A stretch of 64,000 nt of DNA, taken from contig NYMS01000002.1 of the NCBI GenBank assembly GCA_002529455.1, positions 1 through 64,000 of the forward strand. The letters run 5' to 3'. Below, in pieces: positions 3,107 through 13,688 of the stretch (position 1 is its first letter; each line of letters starts with the position of its first letter). Made by a program: the position numbers and the translations under genes. Origin of the DNA: Glycomyces fuscus (GTDB taxonomy: Bacteria > Actinomycetota > Actinomycetes > Streptosporangiales > Streptosporangiaceae). The notes beneath the pieces are model-generated. The model was not told where the DNA came from. It saw only the letters and a program-made list of their open reading frames with translations, and did not search any database.

Positions 3107-3197
3107 TGGCACGACACCGGGCGGCACCTCTTGACACGAAACGATGGTGGTGATCGGGTGGATAGGGACGAAACGGCACTCTGTGGCACGTAGAGGC

Positions 3198-3260
3198 ACG
3201 AAGGCGCCGGACTTCTAATCCGATGGTCGCAGGTTCGAATCCTGCCGGGTGCGCCACAAA
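3198..3260 (+). repeat. tRNA 3'-end remnant (attachment-site scar), copy 2
   Basis: From CTTCTAA to CCACAAAA this copy is almost identical to the one ending at 1838, with a single C-to-T change in the variable region. The tRNA part ends at 3256. Again there is no 5' half. The two copies define a 1418-bp interval holding only the SUKH gene. Confidence 0.8.
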
Positions 3261-5239: not shown

Positions 5240-8200
5240 TTAAACACCGAGGTAGGATGCCCCAGCTGACGCGCCCTCTGTAAGGGCACCCGGGTTACTC
5301 CAACTGCACGCCCGGTTGGCGCGCACAGTCCAGACAGCGAGGCTCCCGCCGAGGCCGACTGCGGAGAGACCTGTGGTGACACCCATAGAGCCAAAAAGGC
5401 CAGGAACGGAGAAGGCCATCCAGAACATGTCTACGGCCTCAGCGACTCCGCACGAAGCAAGGCCGCTGGGGTCGGTGTTGTTGATGGGGTCGCACTGGGC
5501 GTAGTTGTAGTTGTTCAACTCCTGCCGGGAGGGGTCTGGCTGGGTGAAGCCCAGCGTGAACGTGCTGTGGAAGCGGTGGTTCAGGTGCACCGTGCCATCC
5601 TGGAACTGGTAGGCGCCGGTGAACCCGAACGGGCTCAATGCCGCCGCATCGGTCCCCTCCAGGGTCTCAGAGGTGCGTTCGCCGTAGGGGCTGTAGTCGT
5701 AGACCACGTCCGGGGACTCTGCCTCCGACCCCTCAGCGGTGAGAGCCAGCACGGTGTTCTGTTGGTCGAGGGTGTAGTGGAAGCGCTCGTCGCCGTCCCA
5801 GGCCACCATGGACACCAACCGCCCGTCGGGGTCGCGCACGAAGCTGGTGCGCTCGCCCTCGGAGGCGATGTTGGTGACGCCCAGCGCGGTGTTGGACAGC
5901 TGCCGCTCCATCCGGGTTCCCTCGTGCACGTCGGTGACGCCGCGCATCTGGGTCTGGTCGGTGGTGTCATAGCTCAGCCACGAGGCCAGTTCGCCCTCAC
6001 CGTCGTGGGAGCGCAGCGTCTGGTTGGTCACCGAGTACTCGTAGACGTACTCACCCCGCGAGGTCATGTTTCCGGCCTCGTCGTGGCCCACCTCGGCCCC
6101 GCGAGCGCTGGTGGGCTGGTCGGCGTCGTTGTAGGCGAACTCCTCGCCCCCGGCGCTCAGCAGGTTGCCGACGTCGTCGTAGGTGTAGTCGGTGGTGCCG
6201 TCGCTGGTCAAGCGGTCCAGGCCGTCGTAGCTGAAGGTCTCCGTCTCCCCGTTGATGGTGCGCGACTGTAACTGGTCGCTGTCAGCGCCGTCCTTGTCGT
6301 AGGAGTAGATAGCCTCCACCAGAGTCTGGTCGGCGGCTCCGGTGGAGGTGATACCGGTCAGGCGCCCGGAGTCGTCGTAGGTACGCTCCTCGCTCGCCCC
6401 ATCCGGGTGGGTGATGGACGTGCGGCGGTTGTTCTCGTCGTTGGTGAAGGTGGTCTCAGCACCCGTGTGGTCGACCAGCGAGGTGAGACGGAACGCGGCG
6501 TCGTAACCGTAGGTCGTGGTTTTGCCGTGTTCGACCATCTCGGTGACGTTGCCCGCGGCGTCGTAGGCGTAGGTGGTCCTCTCGCTCCCACTGGTATCGG
6601 TGCGCACGGTTTCGAGCAGGTCGCCGCGGCCGTTGTAGGCGTGCTCCACGCTGGCCTGGTCGGTGTGGGTGGCGACCTGGCGGCCGTTGCCGTCGTAGGC
6701 GATGGCCTGGAGCAGGTCGCCGCCCTGGGAGATGGACACGATCCGGTCGAGGCGGTCGTAGCCGTATTCCAAGGTCACACCGTTGCCGTCGGTGACCGAG
6801 GTGACCCGCGACAACGAGTCGTAGCCGAAGGAGGTGGTGCCCATCGGCCCCGGCTCGTCCATCGCCGTCATGTTGCCCACGTTGTCATAGCTGTAGGTGG
6901 TGGAGTTGCCGTTGGCGTCCTGTATCTCGGACACCAGCCCTTGCCCGGTGTAGGAGATGTCGGTGACCTCGATGTCCATCTCCTCCTGGACCGCGGAGGT
7001 GAGGTTGCCGGCGTCTTCGTAGGACATCTCCAACGTGTCCCCGTCCGGGGTGGTCACGCTGGTGGGCTTGGCCGGGTTGGCGGTGTCGGTGAACCCGACC
7101 GAGGTCGCGGCTCCCGTGGGCAGTTCGGTGCCGATGAGGTTGTTGAACTCGTCGTAGTCATAGGTCACCGAGGCCTCCAGGGCGTCGGTGGTGGTGGCCA
7201 CATCCGAGTTCGCCGTCCAGGTCTGGGAGCGGGTGTTGCCCACCTGGTCGGTCGCCGAGGTCTGGCGGCCCTGGTCGTCGAACTCGAAGGTGGACTCGCC
7301 ACCTTCGGGATCGGTGACCGTGGTCTCGGGGTTGTTCCAGCCGCTCTCGGCATAGGAGTAGGAGGTGGTGGCCCCGTCTTCGCTGCCGTCGGGCACGGTC
7401 AGGCTGGCGACACGGTCGTCGTCGTTGTAGGCGATGGCCCACACCGCGCCGGTGGCGTCGGTGATCGAGGTCAACAGGCCGTCGTCGTTGTAACCGAACT
7501 CCAGGTCCTGGCCCGCACGGTCGGTCAGGGTGGCGGGCTTGTCCCCGTCGCCCGGGGTGTACGTTGCGGCGGTTTCACCGGTGGGATCTGTGATGGTGGG
7601 GATGGTGCCGTTGTCCCAGTCGAAGGTGGTAACCCGGTCCTGGGTGTCCACGACCGAGGCCAGGTCGCCCTCAGGGTTGTAGCGCATCCGGTGGGTGTTG
7701 CCGTTGCGGTCGGCCTGGGAGTACAGCCACCCGTTGGCGTTGAAAGTCCACACCTGGTCGGCGTACTCGCCTCGGTGGAAGGTCAGCGCGTAGTGACCGT
7801 TCTCCAGCTCGGCCAGTTCAGCGTTGAGACCGGAGGGCGAGGTGAAGGAGCCGTCCTCGGCGATGTCGAAACTCTCGCAGTAGCCCGAGGGGCCCTGGAA
7901 GATGATGCTGTTGCTGTAGACGCGCAGTCCCACGTCCCGGCCATGGGAGAGGGTCCAGCCGCCATAGGAGGGCGCGGAGTTGTAGAAGCTGGAGACCGAC
8001 AGGTCCAGCCCGGTTCCGGCCATGGTGAGGTTGCGGTGGCGGATAACGAGGTTGCCGTTGTGGGAGTTGACCGCCACCTCCATCCGGTCGCTGACCTGGT
8101 GGCGCTCCAGCGGATACCAGGACTGGATACCGCGGTCGATGCCGTCGTCGCAGGTGATGACCCTGGGCTCAGGGTTTTCCGCGCGGGCTTCGGGGGCGGT

Positions 8201-8425
8201 TTCATCTTCGGCCCCGGGCGGGGTCCAGGGTTCGTTGGGGGGTTCTCCGCCCACCGGTTCGGTGTTGGCCTCGCCCGGCACCCAGGTGTCGGGGATCGGG
8301 ACGGTGCGGTCTGCGGGTGAGTGGGGGTCGGTCTCGGCCAGGGCCGGGGGTGCGGACAGCAGCCCCAGTACGAGGGTGGAGGCGGCCGTCGCGGCCGTCA
8401 GGGACCAGGGGATGTGCTTTCTCAC
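5240..8425 (-). CDS. secreted Rhs/YD-repeat polymorphic toxin-like protein
   Basis: This protein of 1061 residues starts at GTG 8425. A GGGAG site upstream supports this start, and it opens a good signal peptide (RKHIPWSLTAATAASTLVLG, then AxA cleavage). A Pro/Glu-rich linker is followed by a DUF6531-like start domain (NSHNGNLVIRHRNLTMAGTG). Some 25-30 YD repeats of the type YDxxGNxTxxxxxxG then form the hollow beta-cage. The core ends with the conserved LNHRFHSTFTLGFTQPDP, NYNYAQCDPINNTDPSG. After that come only about 73 residues, hydrophobic and Gly-rich (VPGLFGSMGVTTGLSAVGLG). No known nuclease or deaminase motif is visible, so the tip may act on membranes or be degenerate. Export is expected by Sec. 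Confidence 0.9.
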   Translation of the reverse strand: MRKHIPWSLTAATAASTLVLGLLSAPPALAETDPHSPADRTVPIPDTWVPGEANTEPVGGEPPNEPWTPPGAEDETAPEARAENPEPRVITCDDGIDRGIQSWYPLERHQVSDRMEVAVNSHNGNLVIRHRNLTMAGTGLDLSVSSFYNSAPSYGGWTLSHGRDVGLRVYSNSIIFQGPSGYCESFDIAEDGSFTSPSGLNAELAELENGHYALTFHRGEYADQVWTFNANGWLYSQADRNGNTHRMRYNPEGDLASVVDTQDRVTTFDWDNGTIPTITDPTGETAATYTPGDGDKPATLTDRAGQDLEFGYNDDGLLTSITDATGAVWAIAYNDDDRVASLTVPDGSEDGATTSYSYAESGWNNPETTVTDPEGGESTFEFDDQGRQTSATDQVGNTRSQTWTANSDVATTTDALEASVTYDYDEFNNLIGTELPTGAATSVGFTDTANPAKPTSVTTPDGDTLEMSYEDAGNLTSAVQEEMDIEVTDISYTGQGLVSEIQDANGNSTTYSYDNVGNMTAMDEPGPMGTTSFGYDSLSRVTSVTDGNGVTLEYGYDRLDRIVSISQGGDLLQAIAYDGNGRQVATHTDQASVEHAYNGRGDLLETVRTDTSGSERTTYAYDAAGNVTEMVEHGKTTTYGYDAAFRLTSLVDHTGAETTFTNDENNRRTSITHPDGASEERTYDDSGRLTGITSTGAADQTLVEAIYSYDKDGADSDQLQSRTINGETETFSYDGLDRLTSDGTTDYTYDDVGNLLSAGGEEFAYNDADQPTSARGAEVGHDEAGNMTSRGEYVYEYSVTNQTLRSHDGEGELASWLSYDTTDQTQMRGVTDVHEGTRMERQLSNTALGVTNIASEGERTSFVRDPDGRLVSMVAWDGDERFHYTLDQQNTVLALTAEGSEAESPDVVYDYSPYGERTSETLEGTDAAALSPFGFTGAYQFQDGTVHLNHRFHSTFTLGFTQPDPSRQELNNYNYAQCDPINNTDPSGLASCGVAEAVDMFWMAFSVPGLFGSMGVTTGLSAVGLGGSLAVWTVRANRACSWSNPGALTEGASAGASYLGV

Positions 8426-8808
8426 GAGGGGGATCGCTCCCAGGGGTTGGGATGTGCACGGGTGCCACCCGGACATGACGGCCCATAGGGTTCGTCTCCG
8501 GGTGGCTCAGGCACCCGGTACGTTACGGAACGCCACACCGCGAGCACCATGAGCCCAGGGTGAAGGGCGTGACCCTGGGTGAGAGGGGCCTTCGGGAAGT
8601 TTGACCATGAGCCAAACGGAGAGTGACCGCGTTCGCGCATGTGAAAGCGAACGCCCAGGGAAACACGGTGTTGCGTACGCCGGATGAGGCCTCCGCGCCT
8701 CACCGGGCTCGGTGACCGGAACCGGCCCCGACGACAATAGTTGCCATACGACAAGATGGCGCGAAAAGCGCAATTCTCACCACCGTAGGCGCTTCCCTGA
8801 AGCCACCT

Positions 8809-8948: not shown

Positions 8949-10415
8949 CTATGCGCGTGCGGGCCTGAGCATCGCGGCGGTGGCCTCGGCTGCCGCACGC
9001 GCGACCTCCGGGAACACCGACTGGTAGGTGTCCTGGGTGAAGTGCGTGGTCGCGTGCCCGAGCTCGCCGGAGACCACCTTCACGTCCGCGCCGGCGGCGA
9101 GCGCGAGCGAGGCCGCGCCGTGGCGCAGCCCGTGCAGGTGGATCGGCGGTAGCCCCGCCGCCTTGGCGATCCGGTTGAACCACCGGGTCACCTGCCCCGG
9201 GTGCCAGCCCGACCCCTCAGGCTGGGTGAACACCAGCCCCGAATCCGTCCAGCCCTGCCCTGCCTGGAGACGCGCCTCGGTCTGGAACTTCTTCCACGAG
9301 CGCAGCACCTTCACGGTGTCCTTGTCCAGGGTGATGGTGCGCTGGCCTGCCGCGCTCTTGGGCGTGGTCGTGGCTGTTTTCCATCCCAGGGTCACCACCT
9401 GGGTGCGGATGTCGACCTGTCCGTCGGTGAGCCGGGTGTTGGCCCACGGCAGTCCGACCGCCTCTCCGCGGCGTAGGCCTTTGACGGCGATGAGGTGGAA
9501 GAGCGGGAACAGCCAGGTGTACTTCTTGGCGTGAGCCAGGAAGGTGATGGTCTGCTCCGGGGTCCACACCATCACCTCGCCGGGCACGGTCCCGTCCACC
9601 TGCCACTGGCGCACCCGGTCAGCCGTCCACACCAGCGGCTTCGTGCGCGGGCACGAAGGAAGCCTCACGTGCGAGGCGATGTTGACCGACACCAGCAGGT
9701 CCGGGCGCCTGACCGCTTCGGACAGGGCGCTGCGCAGGGTGGCGCGGATGCGGTGCTTGGTGGTCAGCGAGATCACCCGCTCTCCCTTGACCGAGTTCCG
9801 CACCTTCAAGTTGTCGGATTCGCGGCACTCCAGGATGTGGGTGTTGCTCTCCTCGATGGCCGCGAACATCTCCTCGACCTGCCAGGAGGTGAGCTTGTCC
9901 AACCGGGTCTGCCCCAGGTGCGGAGTGAGGTACTTGCGGATGTGTCCGTCGTAGGACAGGCGGGTCTTTTCCGCCAGGTCTGGTTTGCCCTCCAACCACT
10001 CGGCCAGCCACGCTGCGACGCTCGGCACCTTCTCCCGGATGCGCACCCCGGCACCGATACGCCGCTTGACCTTCTCGACCTGAGGGAGGCGGTGGCGGCC
10101 CCGTAGTGCGGCCTGGATGAGGTCGGCAACCTGGACCTCAGTCTCCTCTTCGCCTTCGGCCAGGCTGATGAGGGCTTTGAGGTGGTCGATCGCCTTCTGC
10201 GCCTCGTCCTGGGAAGCGAGCCCGGTGCGCCGCGCTTGGCGGCGCTTGTCCTCGCTGGTGCGGGGCAGCTCCAGTTGGAAGCCCCACTCCCCATGCCGGG
10301 GATTCCACCCGCTCTCGTCCCGGCGCAACCGCGGGCACTTCGCCCCGAGGAGTTTGCCGCTCATCTGGTCGCGACATCCGCAGCGTTTGAACACCGACCC
10401 GTCATGAGAAGCCAT
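8949..10415 (-). CDS. int: tyrosine recombinase (site-specific integrase), complete
   Basis: This is a 488-residue integrase. Residues 1-60 form an N-terminal arm-binding region with Cys pairs (CGCRDQ), typical of actinobacterial element integrases. Residues 125-260 are the SAM-like core-binding domain (VPSVAAWLAEWLEG, LSYDGHIRKYLTPHLG). Residues 280-480 are the catalytic domain with Arg315 (GLRRGE), Lys353, His428 and Arg431 (HGLRHG), His454 (LGHAT) and the nucleophile Tyr464 (QDTYQSV). All are present, so it should be active in integration and excision. The ATG follows the xis stop codon directly, with GGTGGGAAG upstream, indicating one transcript. The 3' end abuts the 24-bp direct repeat. 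Confidence 0.96.
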   Translation of the reverse strand: MASHDGSVFKRCGCRDQMSGKLLGAKCPRLRRDESGWNPRHGEWGFQLELPRTSEDKRRQARRTGLASQDEAQKAIDHLKALISLAEGEEETEVQVADLIQAALRGRHRLPQVEKVKRRIGAGVRIREKVPSVAAWLAEWLEGKPDLAEKTRLSYDGHIRKYLTPHLGQTRLDKLTSWQVEEMFAAIEESNTHILECRESDNLKVRNSVKGERVISLTTKHRIRATLRSALSEAVRRPDLLVSVNIASHVRLPSCPRTKPLVWTADRVRQWQVDGTVPGEVMVWTPEQTITFLAHAKKYTWLFPLFHLIAVKGLRRGEAVGLPWANTRLTDGQVDIRTQVVTLGWKTATTTPKSAAGQRTITLDKDTVKVLRSWKKFQTEARLQAGQGWTDSGLVFTQPEGSGWHPGQVTRWFNRIAKAAGLPPIHLHGLRHGAASLALAAGADVKVVSGELGHATTHFTQDTYQSVFPEVARAAAEATAAMLRPARA

Positions 10416-10694
10416 CTACTTCCCACCTTTCCTCTGGTCCTCGCGCGCACCGCACCCACATTCACTTCGTGGTGGGAAGGCCAGGTGGTCCAGGCCGAGG
10501 TGGGCCAGGACTCCGACGGTGGGCACCATCCACGCCTTACCCGCCCGGTGCGCGGGCACCGGAAAGGCACCTTGGCGCAGGAGCCGGTAGGCGGTGGTGC
10601 GGCCCAGACCGAGCATCCGACCGGCCGTCACCGGATCCAGCACCACCGGCGACGACCCCACCTCGTCAAGCCAAAGGGAAGGTTTCACACCCAC
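10416..10694 (-). CDS. xis: excisionase-like MerR/HTH protein
   Basis: This is a 92-residue DNA-binding protein. The helix-turn-helix DPVTAGRMLGLGRTTAYRLL is followed by RQGAFPVPAHRAGKAWMVPT, the wing of the excisionase/HTH_17 type. Such proteins bend the attachment site and direct the integrase toward excision. GTG 10694 (or GTG 10688) is chosen because GGGGAGAG precedes it; the longer upstream frame has no family similarity. The stop at 10416-10418 touches the integrase start, so the pair is translationally linked. Its presence suggests the element could still excise. Confidence 0.85.
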   Translation of the reverse strand: MGVKPSLWLDEVGSSPVVLDPVTAGRMLGLGRTTAYRLLRQGAFPVPAHRAGKAWMVPTVGVLAHLGLDHLAFPPRSECGCGAREDQRKGGK

Positions 10695-11252
10695 CCGTCC
10701 CGCCTCTCCCCCATCGGTGACCTGCGCGGATACGGTGCGCGGCCCCGCGTGCGGCGGGGCACCACGCATCCACGCTCGACCTCGCCGAGTAGTGCAAGCG
10801 GATTCGGCACGGCCGCCATCTGGCTGGTGCCCCAAAGCGCCCGCACGTGGGCCTTGCTGGGCAGCGCGGAGCACGCGCTCGACGGCCTCCAGGCGGCCAC
10901 GGCCCTGCGCGAAGGACTGCGCGGCGACGACCTGCTCCGTGTTTACGGAGACGTGGAGGCGGTGAGGCATCGCCCGCGCGACTCCTGTCGTCAACGGGAA
11001 GTGAAAATTATTTCCGCCGAAAAACCCGAGTGACTTCCACCCTGCCACCGCGTTTCATGAAAGTGCAGGCTTTGTCGTTCCGAGGGAAAACCAGTGATGG
11101 AAATCCATCCCCGCGGAGCCAGACTTTGGTCACCGGGTATCCACGTGAACCTCACTCGGACACTACTTTCCCTTGCGGGTAGGGCTTGCGTAGCGTTCAC
11201 TGCGATCTCCGGAACCGTTGGGGAACCGGAATTGAGTGGAAGGAAGCAACCC
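10695..11252. other. 550-bp region between xis and the RiPP precursor
   Basis: A plus-strand frame around 10830-11033 (LVPQSARTWALLGSAEHAL) could be the end of a lost gene, but it has no start and no recognisable domain. The right part (11040-11240) probably contains the promoter of the precursor gene. Confidence 0.35.
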
Positions 11253-11336
11253 ATGAGGAGAGCCGCCTACCGCATCGCCGCCAAACTGCGCATCATCGAC
11301 GGCGCCCGGCTGACCCGCCCCTACATCTACTACTAG
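11253..11336 (+). CDS. cittilin/RP-66453-like RiPP precursor peptide (27 aa)
   Basis: This is a 27-codon gene with an AGGAAG ribosome site six bases before ATG 11253. The leader MRRAAYRIAAKLRIIDGARL is basic and amphipathic. It is followed by T-R and the C-terminal core P-Y-I-Y-Y immediately before the stop. Established knowledge: cittilins and RP-66453 are bicyclic Tyr-Ile-Tyr-Tyr tetrapeptides. In Myxococcus a 27-residue precursor ending in YIYY is cross-linked by one P450 (biaryl plus aryl ether) and O-methylated. Here length, core and neighbouring P450 all agree. The Pro before YIYY would suit release by a prolyl endopeptidase (inference). The related atropopeptides have Trp-containing cores and fit less well. 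Confidence 0.87.
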   Translation: MRRAAYRIAAKLRIIDGARLTRPYIYY

Positions 11337-11362
11337 GAATCCGAAGATTCCGTAGTTCTCCC

Positions 11363-11391
11363 GGCCCGTGCCGCCCCTCGGGGCACGGGCC
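11363..11391 (+). terminator. attenuator-type hairpin between precursor and P450
   Basis: GGCCCGTGCC pairs with GGCACGGGCC around a nine-base loop, in the 73-bp gap between the precursor stop and the P450 start. Partial termination here would give much more precursor than enzyme. Confidence 0.65.
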
Positions 11392-11409
11392 CCGCCCGGA
11401 ACGGACCCG

Positions 11410-12648
11410 ATGACGGCCATGACCTCCGCGCCACCGGGGCCCCACGGTGGGCGTGGCACCTCCAACGTCGCCGACTTCGCGCTCGACCCGCTCGCTTTCC
11501 TCTCCCGTGCGGCCCGAGAGTTCGGCGACGTCGTTTCCCTCACCCCCTCGAACGTGCTCCTGGTCCACCCCGACGACATCCGCCGGGTGCTGGTGGACTG
11601 CGGCGAGAACGTCGTCAAGATCAGTGCGGGTGTCCGGCGCGGACCCACGGGCTTCCCCCTCGCCATGATGAACAGTGAGGGTCTGGACTGGGAGCGCAAA
11701 CGCGCTCGGCTCCGTCCCGCCTTCCGCAGCGAGCGCTTGGAACACCTGGAACGCGTGGCGCGTGAGGGTGTCGCTCACACCGTCGACACCTGGCGTGACG
11801 GCCAGACCATCGACGTACACCGGGAGATGTCAGGGCTGGCCATGCGGATCGGGGCCACGCACATCGCCGGGCGCGAACTCGGCGAGCGGGGCGAGGCGCT
11901 GACCGCCGCTGTGGCGGCCATCATGCGGCTGACCTCGTCTCCGCGTCTTCCGACGTGGTTGCCGACCCGCGTCAACCGGGAACTCAGGCAGTCCCTGCGG
12001 ACCCTGGACGAGACCCTCGCGGCTCTGGTCCGCGACCACCGGCCCACGGGTTCCGACACGGCGTTGGACCGGCTGCTGTCCGACGACCCGCCCTTCGAGG
12101 AGGTCAGGGACGAGCTCGCCACTCTCCTGATGTCGGGGTACGAGACCACGGCCGACGCCCTGACATGGCTCTTCTTCGCACTGGGGGGACACGGCGAGGC
12201 CGACGGCCGGATGGCGGACGACGGCTACGCCCTCGCGGCGGCCAAGGAGGCGATGCGCCTGTACCCGCCCGCGTGGGTGATCAGCCGCGAGACCGTGCGC
12301 CCCTTCGAGGCCGGTGGCTACACGCTCCCCCCTGGCACGGTCCTGGGCCTGAGCCAGTGGGTCACCCACCGCGACGAGCGGTGGTTCCCGGCCCCTGAGG
12401 AGTTCCGGCCCGAGCGGTGGTTCGGGCGCGGCCCGACCCCCCGCCACGCCTACTTCCCCTTCGGAGCCGGCCCGAGGGGCTGTGTGGGCGCGTCGATGGC
12501 TCTGCGCGAGACAGAGGTCATCGCCAGGGAACTGCGCGCGCGGGTGCGACTGGACCTGGTCGACCCGCAGTCCGTCCGGCCGCACCCGGCACTGGCGCTT
12601 CAGCCTCGCGGGGTGCGGGCGGTCGTGCGCAGGGAGCGCCCTGTGTGA
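11410..12648 (+). CDS. cytochrome P450, likely Tyr-Tyr cross-linking enzyme of the RiPP
   Basis: This is a complete 412-residue bacterial P450. The I-helix oxygen-binding segment is MSGYETTAD (residues 241-249, with Ser in place of the usual Ala). The K-helix ExxR is E280-A-M-R283. The meander has PEEFRPERWF, and the haem loop FGAGPRGCVG supplies the Cys ligand C358. The fold is complete, so the enzyme should be active. It follows the precursor gene on the same strand with only a hairpin between. By analogy with CitB it would form the biaryl and diaryl-ether bonds among the three tyrosines of the YIYY core. No ferredoxin gene is nearby, so electron donors must come from elsewhere. In-frame starts before 11410 are possible but would overlap the hairpin. 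Confidence 0.93.
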   Translation: MTAMTSAPPGPHGGRGTSNVADFALDPLAFLSRAAREFGDVVSLTPSNVLLVHPDDIRRVLVDCGENVVKISAGVRRGPTGFPLAMMNSEGLDWERKRARLRPAFRSERLEHLERVAREGVAHTVDTWRDGQTIDVHREMSGLAMRIGATHIAGRELGERGEALTAAVAAIMRLTSSPRLPTWLPTRVNRELRQSLRTLDETLAALVRDHRPTGSDTALDRLLSDDPPFEEVRDELATLLMSGYETTADALTWLFFALGGHGEADGRMADDGYALAAAKEAMRLYPPAWVISRETVRPFEAGGYTLPPGTVLGLSQWVTHRDERWFPAPEEFRPERWFGRGPTPRHAYFPFGAGPRGCVGASMALRETEVIARELRARVRLDLVDPQSVRPHPALALQPRGVRAVVRRERPV

Positions 12649-12710
12649 AAGCGCCGCCGGGTCAGGGCGGTCGCGTCCAGGAAACGGCCCCGCTTGACGG
12701 CTCCACCGGG

Positions 12711-13469
12711 TCAGGGCCGGGTGGCGCTGACCACGAAGAAGGGGATGGCGGCGAAGAGCCTCCCCTCGCGAGCGCGCTCACGCTGGTCCTCGGCCCAGGA
12801 GGCGGCTTGTTCCGCTGTGACCGCACCGGCTTCCTCCGCCACCTCCGCCAATGCCATGAGCATGGGCAGGACCTCCTCGTCCGTGAGCACGAGCACGCTC
12901 CCCTCCACTTCGATGCCGGTGAACCCCGCGTCGAGCAGCAGCGCCCGCTGGTGCCGGGGCGCGCGTGCGTCGGGCATCCGATCGGCGTAGGACCGCAGGA
13001 TGGAGCGGGTGACCCCGGAGTCGGCGGCGTCCACCATGTAGGCGTCCCAATCCTGTCCGACCAGGACGATACGGCCGCCGGGTGCCAGGACCCGGCGTGC
13101 CTCGGCCAGGGCCCCCCGGGGGTCGTCCAGGGAGTGGTAGACCTTTTCCGCCCGGTAGCCCTGAGCGGAGGCGTCCGCGAGCGGGAGTTCGTAGGCGTCG
13201 CCCAGGCGGAGATCCGCCTCGGGGTGACGCGAACGCGCGGCGTCGAGCATCCGCTGGTCGAGGTCGACCCCCACCGCGTGCGGCCCTTCGGCGGCGATCT
13301 CGGCCACGGCCCGTCCCCCGCCGCAGCCAACGTCCACGACCGTGTCCTGCGGTCCGCAGCGCAGCAGTTCTCGGGCCCGCGCGCGAAGTTCGCGGGCGAA
13401 GGGGGTGAGGTCGAAGCGGTCCAGTCGAGCGAGGAGGCGGTCCGTGTCGTAACGCTGGGGAGTCTGCAT
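12711..13469 (-). CDS. class I SAM-dependent methyltransferase
   Basis: This is a 252-residue protein with the Rossmann methyltransferase core. Motif I is VVDVGCGGGRAVAEI (residues 44-58), the acidic end of strand 2 is VGVDLDQRML, and motif III is VLAPGGRIVLVGQDWD, in a Methyltransf_11/25 arrangement. It is convergent with the P450, ending 62 bp after it, inside the same integrative segment. Cittilin A differs from RP-66453 by one O-methyl group added by a dedicated methyltransferase. This gene is the natural candidate, but its opposite orientation and generic sequence leave the assignment uncertain. A CAGGAT hexamer six bases before ATG 13469 suggests leaderless transcription. Confidence 0.88.
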   Translation of the reverse strand: MQTPQRYDTDRLLARLDRFDLTPFARELRARARELLRCGPQDTVVDVGCGGGRAVAEIAAEGPHAVGVDLDQRMLDAARSRHPEADLRLGDAYELPLADASAQGYRAEKVYHSLDDPRGALAEARRVLAPGGRIVLVGQDWDAYMVDAADSGVTRSILRSYADRMPDARAPRHQRALLLDAGFTGIEVEGSVLVLTDEEVLPMLMALAEVAEEAGAVTAEQAASWAEDQRERAREGRLFAAIPFFVVSATRP

Positions 13470-13688
13470 AGGGGCATCCTGCTCTCCCGCCCCCGTGGGT
13501 TCAACGTTGGGCGAAGAGCGGGTCCGGTCCGCTCTGGGCAGGGAGGCGGGTCCGCCATGCGTGAACGGCGGGAACGGCCCTCAGCCGGGCTTCGGGTCGG
13601 CTGCCTGAGCTGTGATGTGGGTCCGGAACGGGAGCAGAACCGGCCCCGTCGACCACGCCGCCCCCTCGCATAACGGCCGGTCCTCCCC

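What the first reader, a model, noticed from the sequence alone, without database searches (positions are those of the whole stretch)
11253..12648. Cittilin/RP-66453-like RiPP locus: 27-residue precursor ending PYIYY beside a P450
The precursor frame has a proper ribosome site, a basic leader and the core Tyr-Ile-Tyr-Tyr right at the C-terminus. The same strand then has a hairpin and a complete P450. Established knowledge: cittilins/RP-66453 are P450-cross-linked YIYY peptides made from precursors of this length. The gene is short enough to be missed by standard annotation. The Pro directly before the core suggests a prolyl-peptidase release step.
Basis: partly seen in the sequence, partly recalled or inferred. 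Interest (0 to 1): 0.93.

Follow-up and report, generated by a model that had tools for sequence, protein, structure and literature searches.

The report
Cittilin-type peptide cassette in Nocardiopsis
This Nocardiopsis-type genome carries a 27-residue peptide gene ending Tyr-Ile-Tyr-Tyr next to a P450 enzyme whose relatives sit beside matching 27-residue peptides in Streptomyces and Myxococcus, so it would likely make a small cross-linked peptide of the cittilin kind, probably finished by a different neighbouring enzyme from the one used in Myxococcus.

Summary
Window 11253-11336 encodes MRRAAYRIAAKLRIIDGARLTRPYIYY, followed by a hairpin (11363-11391) and an intact P450 (11410-12648). Of 73 named loci with related P450s, the 16 closest all have a 27-residue precursor ending PYxYY; the other 57 (upstream DNA held for 55) have none. 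Ten of 10 close myxobacterial relatives, which match published cittilin biology, have a 27-residue precursor, a P450 44-47% identical to ours and a CitC-like methyltransferase. The 32 precursor-linked P450s in the tree lie on one side of a 100/100 branch. The locus is cittilin-type, but a variant. Its third gene is a convergent methyltransferase, only distantly similar to CitC, adjacent in 12 of 12 loci of its clade (in two pieces in one). Sister lineages instead have a same-strand sulfotransferase (7 of 7 named loci); six Streptomyces-group loci have neither. The core's second residue varies (I, V, S, N, M, H). A strong hairpin follows the precursor in 27-29 of 35 loci, against 1 of 23 comparable P450 upstream regions. 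Cross-links, methylation, sulfation and prolyl release are inferred; no product was measured.

The parts
11238..11247 (+). purine-rich ribosome-binding site of the precursor
   Evidence: Sequence; purine-rich stretch before the same start codon in the relatives
11253..11336 (+). 27-residue precursor peptide gene: 23-residue leader and core YIYY
   Evidence: Frame read directly; 35 of 36 family loci have a 27-residue form ending YxYY
11363..11391 (+). hairpin between precursor and P450, likely an attenuator or mRNA 3'-end protector (inferred)
   Evidence: Window z -2.7 against shuffles; family 27 of 35 and 29 of 35 (new shuffles) with z < -2; controls 1 of 54, 1 of 23, 8 of 152 and 13 of 112
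11410..12648 (+). cytochrome P450, CitB-like, predicted tyrosine cross-linking enzyme
   Evidence: PF00067; 44-47% identity to P450s beside myxobacterial 27-residue YxYY precursors; one side of a 100/100 branch
12711..13469 (-). class I SAM methyltransferase, convergent; likely tailoring enzyme (inferred)
   Evidence: PF08241; beside the P450 in 12 of 12 loci of the window's clade, in two pieces in L043; 11 of 11 P450-positive against 4 of 27 P450-negative genus genomes; 11 cluster copies apart from the 4 others at 100/99

Best explanation
The locus encodes a 27-residue precursor ending YIYY and a P450 of the cittilin type, which are predicted to make a doubly cross-linked Tyr-Ile-Tyr-Tyr peptide that the conserved convergent methyltransferase likely methylates. 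Likely mechanism: the precursor is translated in excess, with the hairpin after its stop codon damping read-through into the P450 (inferred). The P450 binds the basic, fixed-length leader and joins the tyrosine side chains by one biaryl and one aryl-ether bond (inferred by homology with CitB). A host prolyl oligopeptidase would then cut after Pro23 (inferred). The methyltransferase would add a methyl group to the product (inferred; site unknown). Shown: the genes, their conservation, their grouping in the tree, the fixed length and the hairpin.
For: Precursor length and YxYY end in 35 of 36 family loci over two phyla. The 32 family P450s in the tree, 10 of them myxobacterial, lie with 7 database proteins on one side of a 100/100 branch. 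In a profile search of 394 class genomes a score gap separates 8 P450s (567 bits or more, our own included) from the next best (348); all 8 above the gap and none of the 22 loci fetched below it have the precursor (only the 4 best candidates per genome were scored there). Methyltransferase adjacency 12 of 12, co-occurrence 11 of 11 against 4 of 27, and the cluster copies group apart from the others at 100/99. Hairpin enrichment. [quoted passage not shown] CitC O-methylates last (PMC11285071, passages).
Against: No product, transcript or enzyme assay exists for this locus. The methyltransferase is on the opposite strand, is only distantly similar to CitC, matches in two pieces in L043, and has 55-58% homologues in 4 of 27 genus genomes without the P450. 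One relative (G992) lost the precursor stop codon, one (G009) has a P450 split between two frames, and one Streptomyces-group precursor has Ala, not Pro, before the core. Six to eight of 35 loci lack a hairpin below z -2, and 13 of 112 control regions after long frames have one. NCBIfam's best hit (ApyO, 142 bits) is far below its cut-off of 525 and does not name the enzyme.
Confidence: 0.86

Rival explanations
1. The pair is a P450-modified peptide locus, but the P450 makes a different pattern, for example a single biaryl or aryl-ether link or a hydroxylation, so the product is not a cittilin.
For: Related P450 peptide systems make varied links (passages of PMC11450843, and PMC13417212). Identity to the myxobacterial P450s is only 44-47%.
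Against: Same core YIYY, same 27-residue architecture, and P450s grouped with the myxobacterial ones.
Confidence: 0.25
2. The methyltransferase is a conserved neighbour with another job, and the locus is a two-gene system giving the unmethylated product.
For: Convergent strand; homologues at 55-58% in 4 of 27 genus genomes without the P450; spacing grows to about 500-900 bases in L045 and L046; the six Streptomyces-group loci have no such gene in the DNA held (tblastn E 1e-5).
Against: Adjacent in 12 of 12 loci of the clade; against the more distant L139 and L140 only the P450 and methyltransferase regions matched among the window's neighbours; cluster copies group apart from the four others at 100/99, which is why I lowered this rival slightly.
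Confidence: 0.3
3. The 27-residue frame is a functional small peptide used unmodified (for example a basic membrane or regulatory peptide), and the P450 acts on something else.
For: Basic N-terminal part; no biochemical data here.
Against: Tyr24, Tyr26 and Tyr27 are invariant in 35 of 35 27-residue precursors, each beside the family P450.
Confidence: 0.04
4. Chance frame beside an ordinary catabolic or terpene P450.
For: Short frames with aromatic ends do occur by chance near other P450s (several). The nearest solved structures listed are ordinary P450s such as CYP184A1 and CYP170A1.
Against: 16 of 16 closest loci against 0 of 57 others, and conservation over two phyla.
Confidence: 0.01

Closest known systems
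Cittilins (CitA/CitB/CitC, Myxococcus)
   Same: 27-residue precursor, C-terminal YIYY, Pro before the core, adjacent P450 in the same tree group, a methyltransferase near by
   Different: Actinobacterial; P450 44-47% identical; methyltransferase only distantly similar to CitC and convergent; sister lineages have a sulfotransferase; core second residue varies across the family
RP-66453 (Streptomyces metabolite)
   Same: Recalled, not from a call: a bicyclic YIYY-type peptide of the cittilin scaffold. That it comes from Streptomyces is in PMC12542763 (passages)
   Different: The producer locus was not identified here; 5 of the 6 Streptomyces-group loci found encode YSYY, YNYY or YMYY and one encodes YIYY after Ala
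Biarylitides (BytA/BytO)
   Same: Minimal precursor plus P450 cross-linking a C-terminal aromatic core; 17 biarylitide clusters encode sulfotransferases (PMC13417212, passage)
   Different: Five-residue precursor against 27; in the myxarylin case the link joins residues 3 and 5 (PMC12951456, passages)
Aminopyruvatide P450 ApyO
   Same: Top NCBIfam hit for the window's P450
   Different: 142 bits against a cut-off of 525; outgroup P450s score 165-185 on the same model

Membership tests
Cittilins | 27-residue precursor with C-terminal YIYY core | tested here: met
   27 residues and tetrapeptide from PMC8708641 passages; the core letters YIYY recalled from Hug et al. 2020 (not held)
Cittilins | adjacent P450 homologous to CitB | tested here: met
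   44-47% identity to P450s beside myxobacterial precursors; same side of a 100/100 branch. The M. xanthus DK1622 gene itself was not fetched by name
Cittilins | methyltransferase CitC in the cluster | tested here: not met
   A methyltransferase is adjacent but only distantly similar to the myxobacterial one: 32% over 96 residues, E 6e-7, convergent. This is a tailoring gene; it keeps the locus from being filed as a cit cluster proper
Cittilins | prolyl endopeptidase encoded elsewhere in the genome (recalled from Hug et al. 2020) | tested here: inconclusive
   Two Peptidase_S9_N matches in the genome, no link to the locus shown
Cittilins | biaryl plus aryl-ether cross-links in the product | not testable with these tools
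   needs product; predicted [M+H]+ 617.2606, methylated 631.2762
Cittilins | CsrA as possible target (recalled from Hug et al. 2020) | tested here: inconclusive
   No CsrA match in the window's own genome (0 of 1; control genomes rang in 3 of 14), so any such target would lie in other bacteria
Biarylitides | five-residue precursor (MxYxH type) | tested here: not met
   precursor is 27 residues ending YIYY
Atropopeptides | atropopeptide P450 group and core | not tested
   no atropopeptide P450 was fetched for comparison
Aminopyruvatides (ApyO) | NCBIfam NF050147 cut-off | tested here: not met
   142.5 bits against 525

The most novel reading that the evidence does not exclude
The cittilin kind is a two-phylum RiPP family held together by three fixed rules (a leader of exactly 23 residues that the P450 measures by length, an invariant Y-x-Y-Y core end, and a hairpin kept in structure but not sequence between precursor and P450), on which each lineage hangs a different finishing enzyme: CitC in myxobacteria, a sulfotransferase in the basal Nocardiopsaceae lineages (predicting sulfated cittilins), and, replacing it once, the convergent methyltransferase seen in this window.
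Probability: 0.45. Interest if true: 0.72.

Novelty: new variant of a known kind. Interest (0 to 1): 0.58.

Why it matters
It moves cittilin biosynthesis from one described myxobacterial system to a family with actinobacterial members, gives six core variants to test P450 tolerance, and predicts methylated and sulfated products with exact masses. It also runs against a 2021 statement that, outside myxobacteria, the genome data then available strictly lacked a methyltransferase gene in such minimal P450 peptide loci (PMC8708641, passage). The fixed 27-residue length over two phyla makes a length-based recognition model directly testable.

Tried and rejected
Chance frame: rejected by 16 of 16 against 0 of 57. 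A percentage cut-off is not used for that split, because one of the 57 (L101) shows 44% in its best segment although its E-value is only 2e-28.

A longer precursor from upstream starts: in-frame TTG, GTG or ATG codons exist upstream in some loci, but only the start 27 codons before the stop is shared. The script asked for a 27-codon form; the wider scans (up to 60 residues) showed no shared longer form, and one search found the one exception (G992).

Naming the P450 by database: NCBIfam, solved structures and fold search gave only general P450s (model mean pLDDT 76.5). No RiPP P450 was recognised by title in the 60, 60 and 50 structure rows listed. Not informative.

Rfam found nothing in 10900-13600. 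Sigma-70 promoter-like sites: 0; terminator-like sites: 2, both on the - strand, so the hairpin is not a classical U-tailed terminator.

Hairpin control: in the first control set several regions lay inside coding sequence or in AT-rich genomes, so I repeated it with 23 GC-rich regions whose match starts near the gene start, 152 random flank windows and 112 regions after long open frames (many of these frames are surely not genes).

Methyltransferase tree: the first script failed to extract the four non-cluster homologues and L045/L046; one search did it properly (15 rows; L043's two-piece gene left out).

Rows dropped from the P450 tree: L141 (P450 broken), L051 and L055 by my motif filter; L198 was fetched later and is in neither the tree nor the hairpin count.

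Literature: searches for cittilin, biarylitide+P450+RiPP, YIYY, RP-66453, cyptide, cittilin+Nocardiopsis, cittilin+sulfotransferase, P450+RiPP+Nocardiopsis and cittilin+Streptomyces listed no paper that I recognised as describing these loci. I saw listings and passages, did not open every paper listed, and the library is open-licence only. Hug et al. 2020 and Nam et al. 2023 are not held; the latter's P450 groups could include this one.

Full report
WHAT IS THERE. The frame at 11253-11336 (+) reads MRRAAYRIAAKLRIIDGARLTRPYIYY, 27 residues, behind a purine-rich ribosome site. A hairpin lies at 11363-11391. The P450 follows at 11410-12648 (+) with heme-ligand, ExxR and helix-I motifs intact. A class I SAM methyltransferase lies convergent at 12711-13469 (-). 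The first translation attempt started one base late and is to be ignored.

HOW IT IS CONSERVED. Among 100 related genomes, 13 besides our own have a P450 at about 66-99% identity; eleven of these are among the 39 same-genus genomes, one of them broken. All 13 carry a 27-residue precursor ending PYIYY. In the named genome collection 73 loci came back. The 16 closest (E 5e-84 or better: Nocardiopsis, Streptomonospora, Allonocardiopsis, Murinocardiopsis, one Streptomyces) all have a 27-residue precursor ending PY[I/V/S]YY. In the other 57 (E 5e-64 or worse) no frame of 15-60 residues ends YxYY; L087 and L110 hold no upstream DNA. A profile search of 394 genomes of the class gave 8 matches at 567 bits or more, our own included, and then a gap to 348. 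All 8 above the gap have the precursor; none of the 22 loci fetched below it has. Only the 4 best candidates per genome were scored there. A search of 392 genomes of the Streptomyces genus gave 4 at E below 1e-110, all with the precursor.

MYXOBACTERIA. Of 96 genomes of the Myxococcus family group, 10 have a close P450 (E 1e-130 or better), and 10 of 10 have a 27-residue precursor, nine ending PYIYY and one PYHYY; the last matches the Myxococcus hansupus P450 P0037 at 100%. All ten also have a same-strand methyltransferase: nine are 76-80% identical to the tenth (L133). This matches the published cittilin system: a 27-residue precursor, the P450 CitB and a methyltransferase (PMC8708641, passages), with CitC O-methylating last (PMC11285071, passages). 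That these are the cit genes is inference; the DK1622 genes were not fetched by name.

THE FAMILY. I count 36 loci: 20 Nocardiopsaceae including the window, 6 of a Streptomyces group (one named, three from its genus search, two unnamed of the same class that group with them), 10 myxobacterial. Thirty-five have a 27-residue precursor (25 distinct sequences) ending YxYY. Cores: YIYY 26, YVYY 3, YSYY 3, YNYY 1, YMYY 1, YHYY 1. Position 23 is Pro in 34 and Ala in 1. Positions 9 (A), 20 (L), 24, 26 and 27 (Y) are invariant, and 2 and 3 are K or R throughout. The exception, G992, found through its sulfotransferase, lost its stop codon and reads PYTYYNQCRSRSA. In the P450 tree the 32 family rows and 7 database proteins of unknown context lie on one side of a 100/100 branch from 11 outgroup rows, with myxobacteria, Streptomyces group and the window's clade each single (midpoint root).

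THE THIRD GENE SWITCHES. In the window's clade the convergent methyltransferase is beside the P450 in 12 of 12 loci, matched in two pieces in one, L043. In 38 genus genomes it is present in 11 of 11 with the P450 and, at 55-58% identity, in 4 of 27 without it (Fisher p 1e-6; related genomes are not independent). The cluster copies and those four lie on opposite sides of a 100/99 branch. In L049-L055, 7 of 7 named loci have a PF17784 sulfotransferase on the same strand, starting within about 75 bases of the P450's end. Of 120 family genomes, 27 have a match to it, 5 of them at 65% or more; by coordinates or by direct reading those 5 sit at cluster loci. The sulfotransferase lineages (5 of 7 in the tree) lie outside the methyltransferase clade on two branches, which suggests one replacement of sulfotransferase by methyltransferase. 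The six Streptomyces-group loci have no match to either gene or to the myxobacterial methyltransferase in the DNA held, about 12-13 kb each. Sulfotransferases are reported in 17 biarylitide clusters (PMC13417212, passage), so the pairing has a parallel in another P450 peptide family.

THE HAIRPIN. In 27 of 35 loci (29 of 35 with new shuffles) the 100 bases after the precursor stop hold a fold more stable than shuffles by z below -2 (mean about -3). Controls: 1 of 54 regions before unrelated P450 matches, 1 of 23 when limited to GC-rich regions near gene starts, 8 of 152 random flank windows, 13 of 112 regions after long open frames. By eye, hairpins of different lineages do not share sequence. 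No U-tract terminator was seen. I infer an attenuator or message-protecting element that keeps peptide in excess over enzyme.

MECHANISM AND LIMITS. Cross-linking, prolyl release, methylation and sulfation are inferred. The genome has two Peptidase_S9_N matches and no CsrA match. No experiment has been done.

NOVELTY. The kind is known; the actinobacterial branch with a replaced finishing enzyme, the core variation and the hairpin were not recognised in the searches listed. Key subscription papers could not be read, so part may already be in print.

Noticed in passing
window 8949-11048 (-): A tyrosine integrase and a helix-turn-helix (excisionase-like) gene lie directly upstream of the precursor. 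In the DNA held for 6 relative genomes only one 79-residue integrase match was found (L141), so an integrated element probably abuts the cassette here. A tRNA-Arg lies at 3176-3256.
   Followed up: partly
L045 5830-7269: Nocardiopsis lucentensis has a second, degenerate precursor copy (leader followed by YDYS, no stop) in frame with the P450, a natural leader-P450 fusion frame.
   Followed up: partly
L198 (G992) upstream of the P450: Precursor stop codon lost; the core reads YTYY with an 8-residue tail, and the sulfotransferase is still present.
   Followed up: partly
L141 / L020 (G009): P450 split between two frames while the precursor and methyltransferase are intact: decay or a sequencing error.
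   Followed up: no
L194 (G844): Streptomyces-group precursor with Ala instead of Pro before YIYY, so release after Pro cannot be universal.
   Followed up: no
window 5240-8476 (-): Large protein rich in YD-type (RHS-like) repeats upstream (identified by eye).
   Followed up: no
L133 / L124 (Myxococcus hansupus P450): Myxobacterial precursor with a YHYY core, a possible histidine-bearing cittilin.
   Followed up: no
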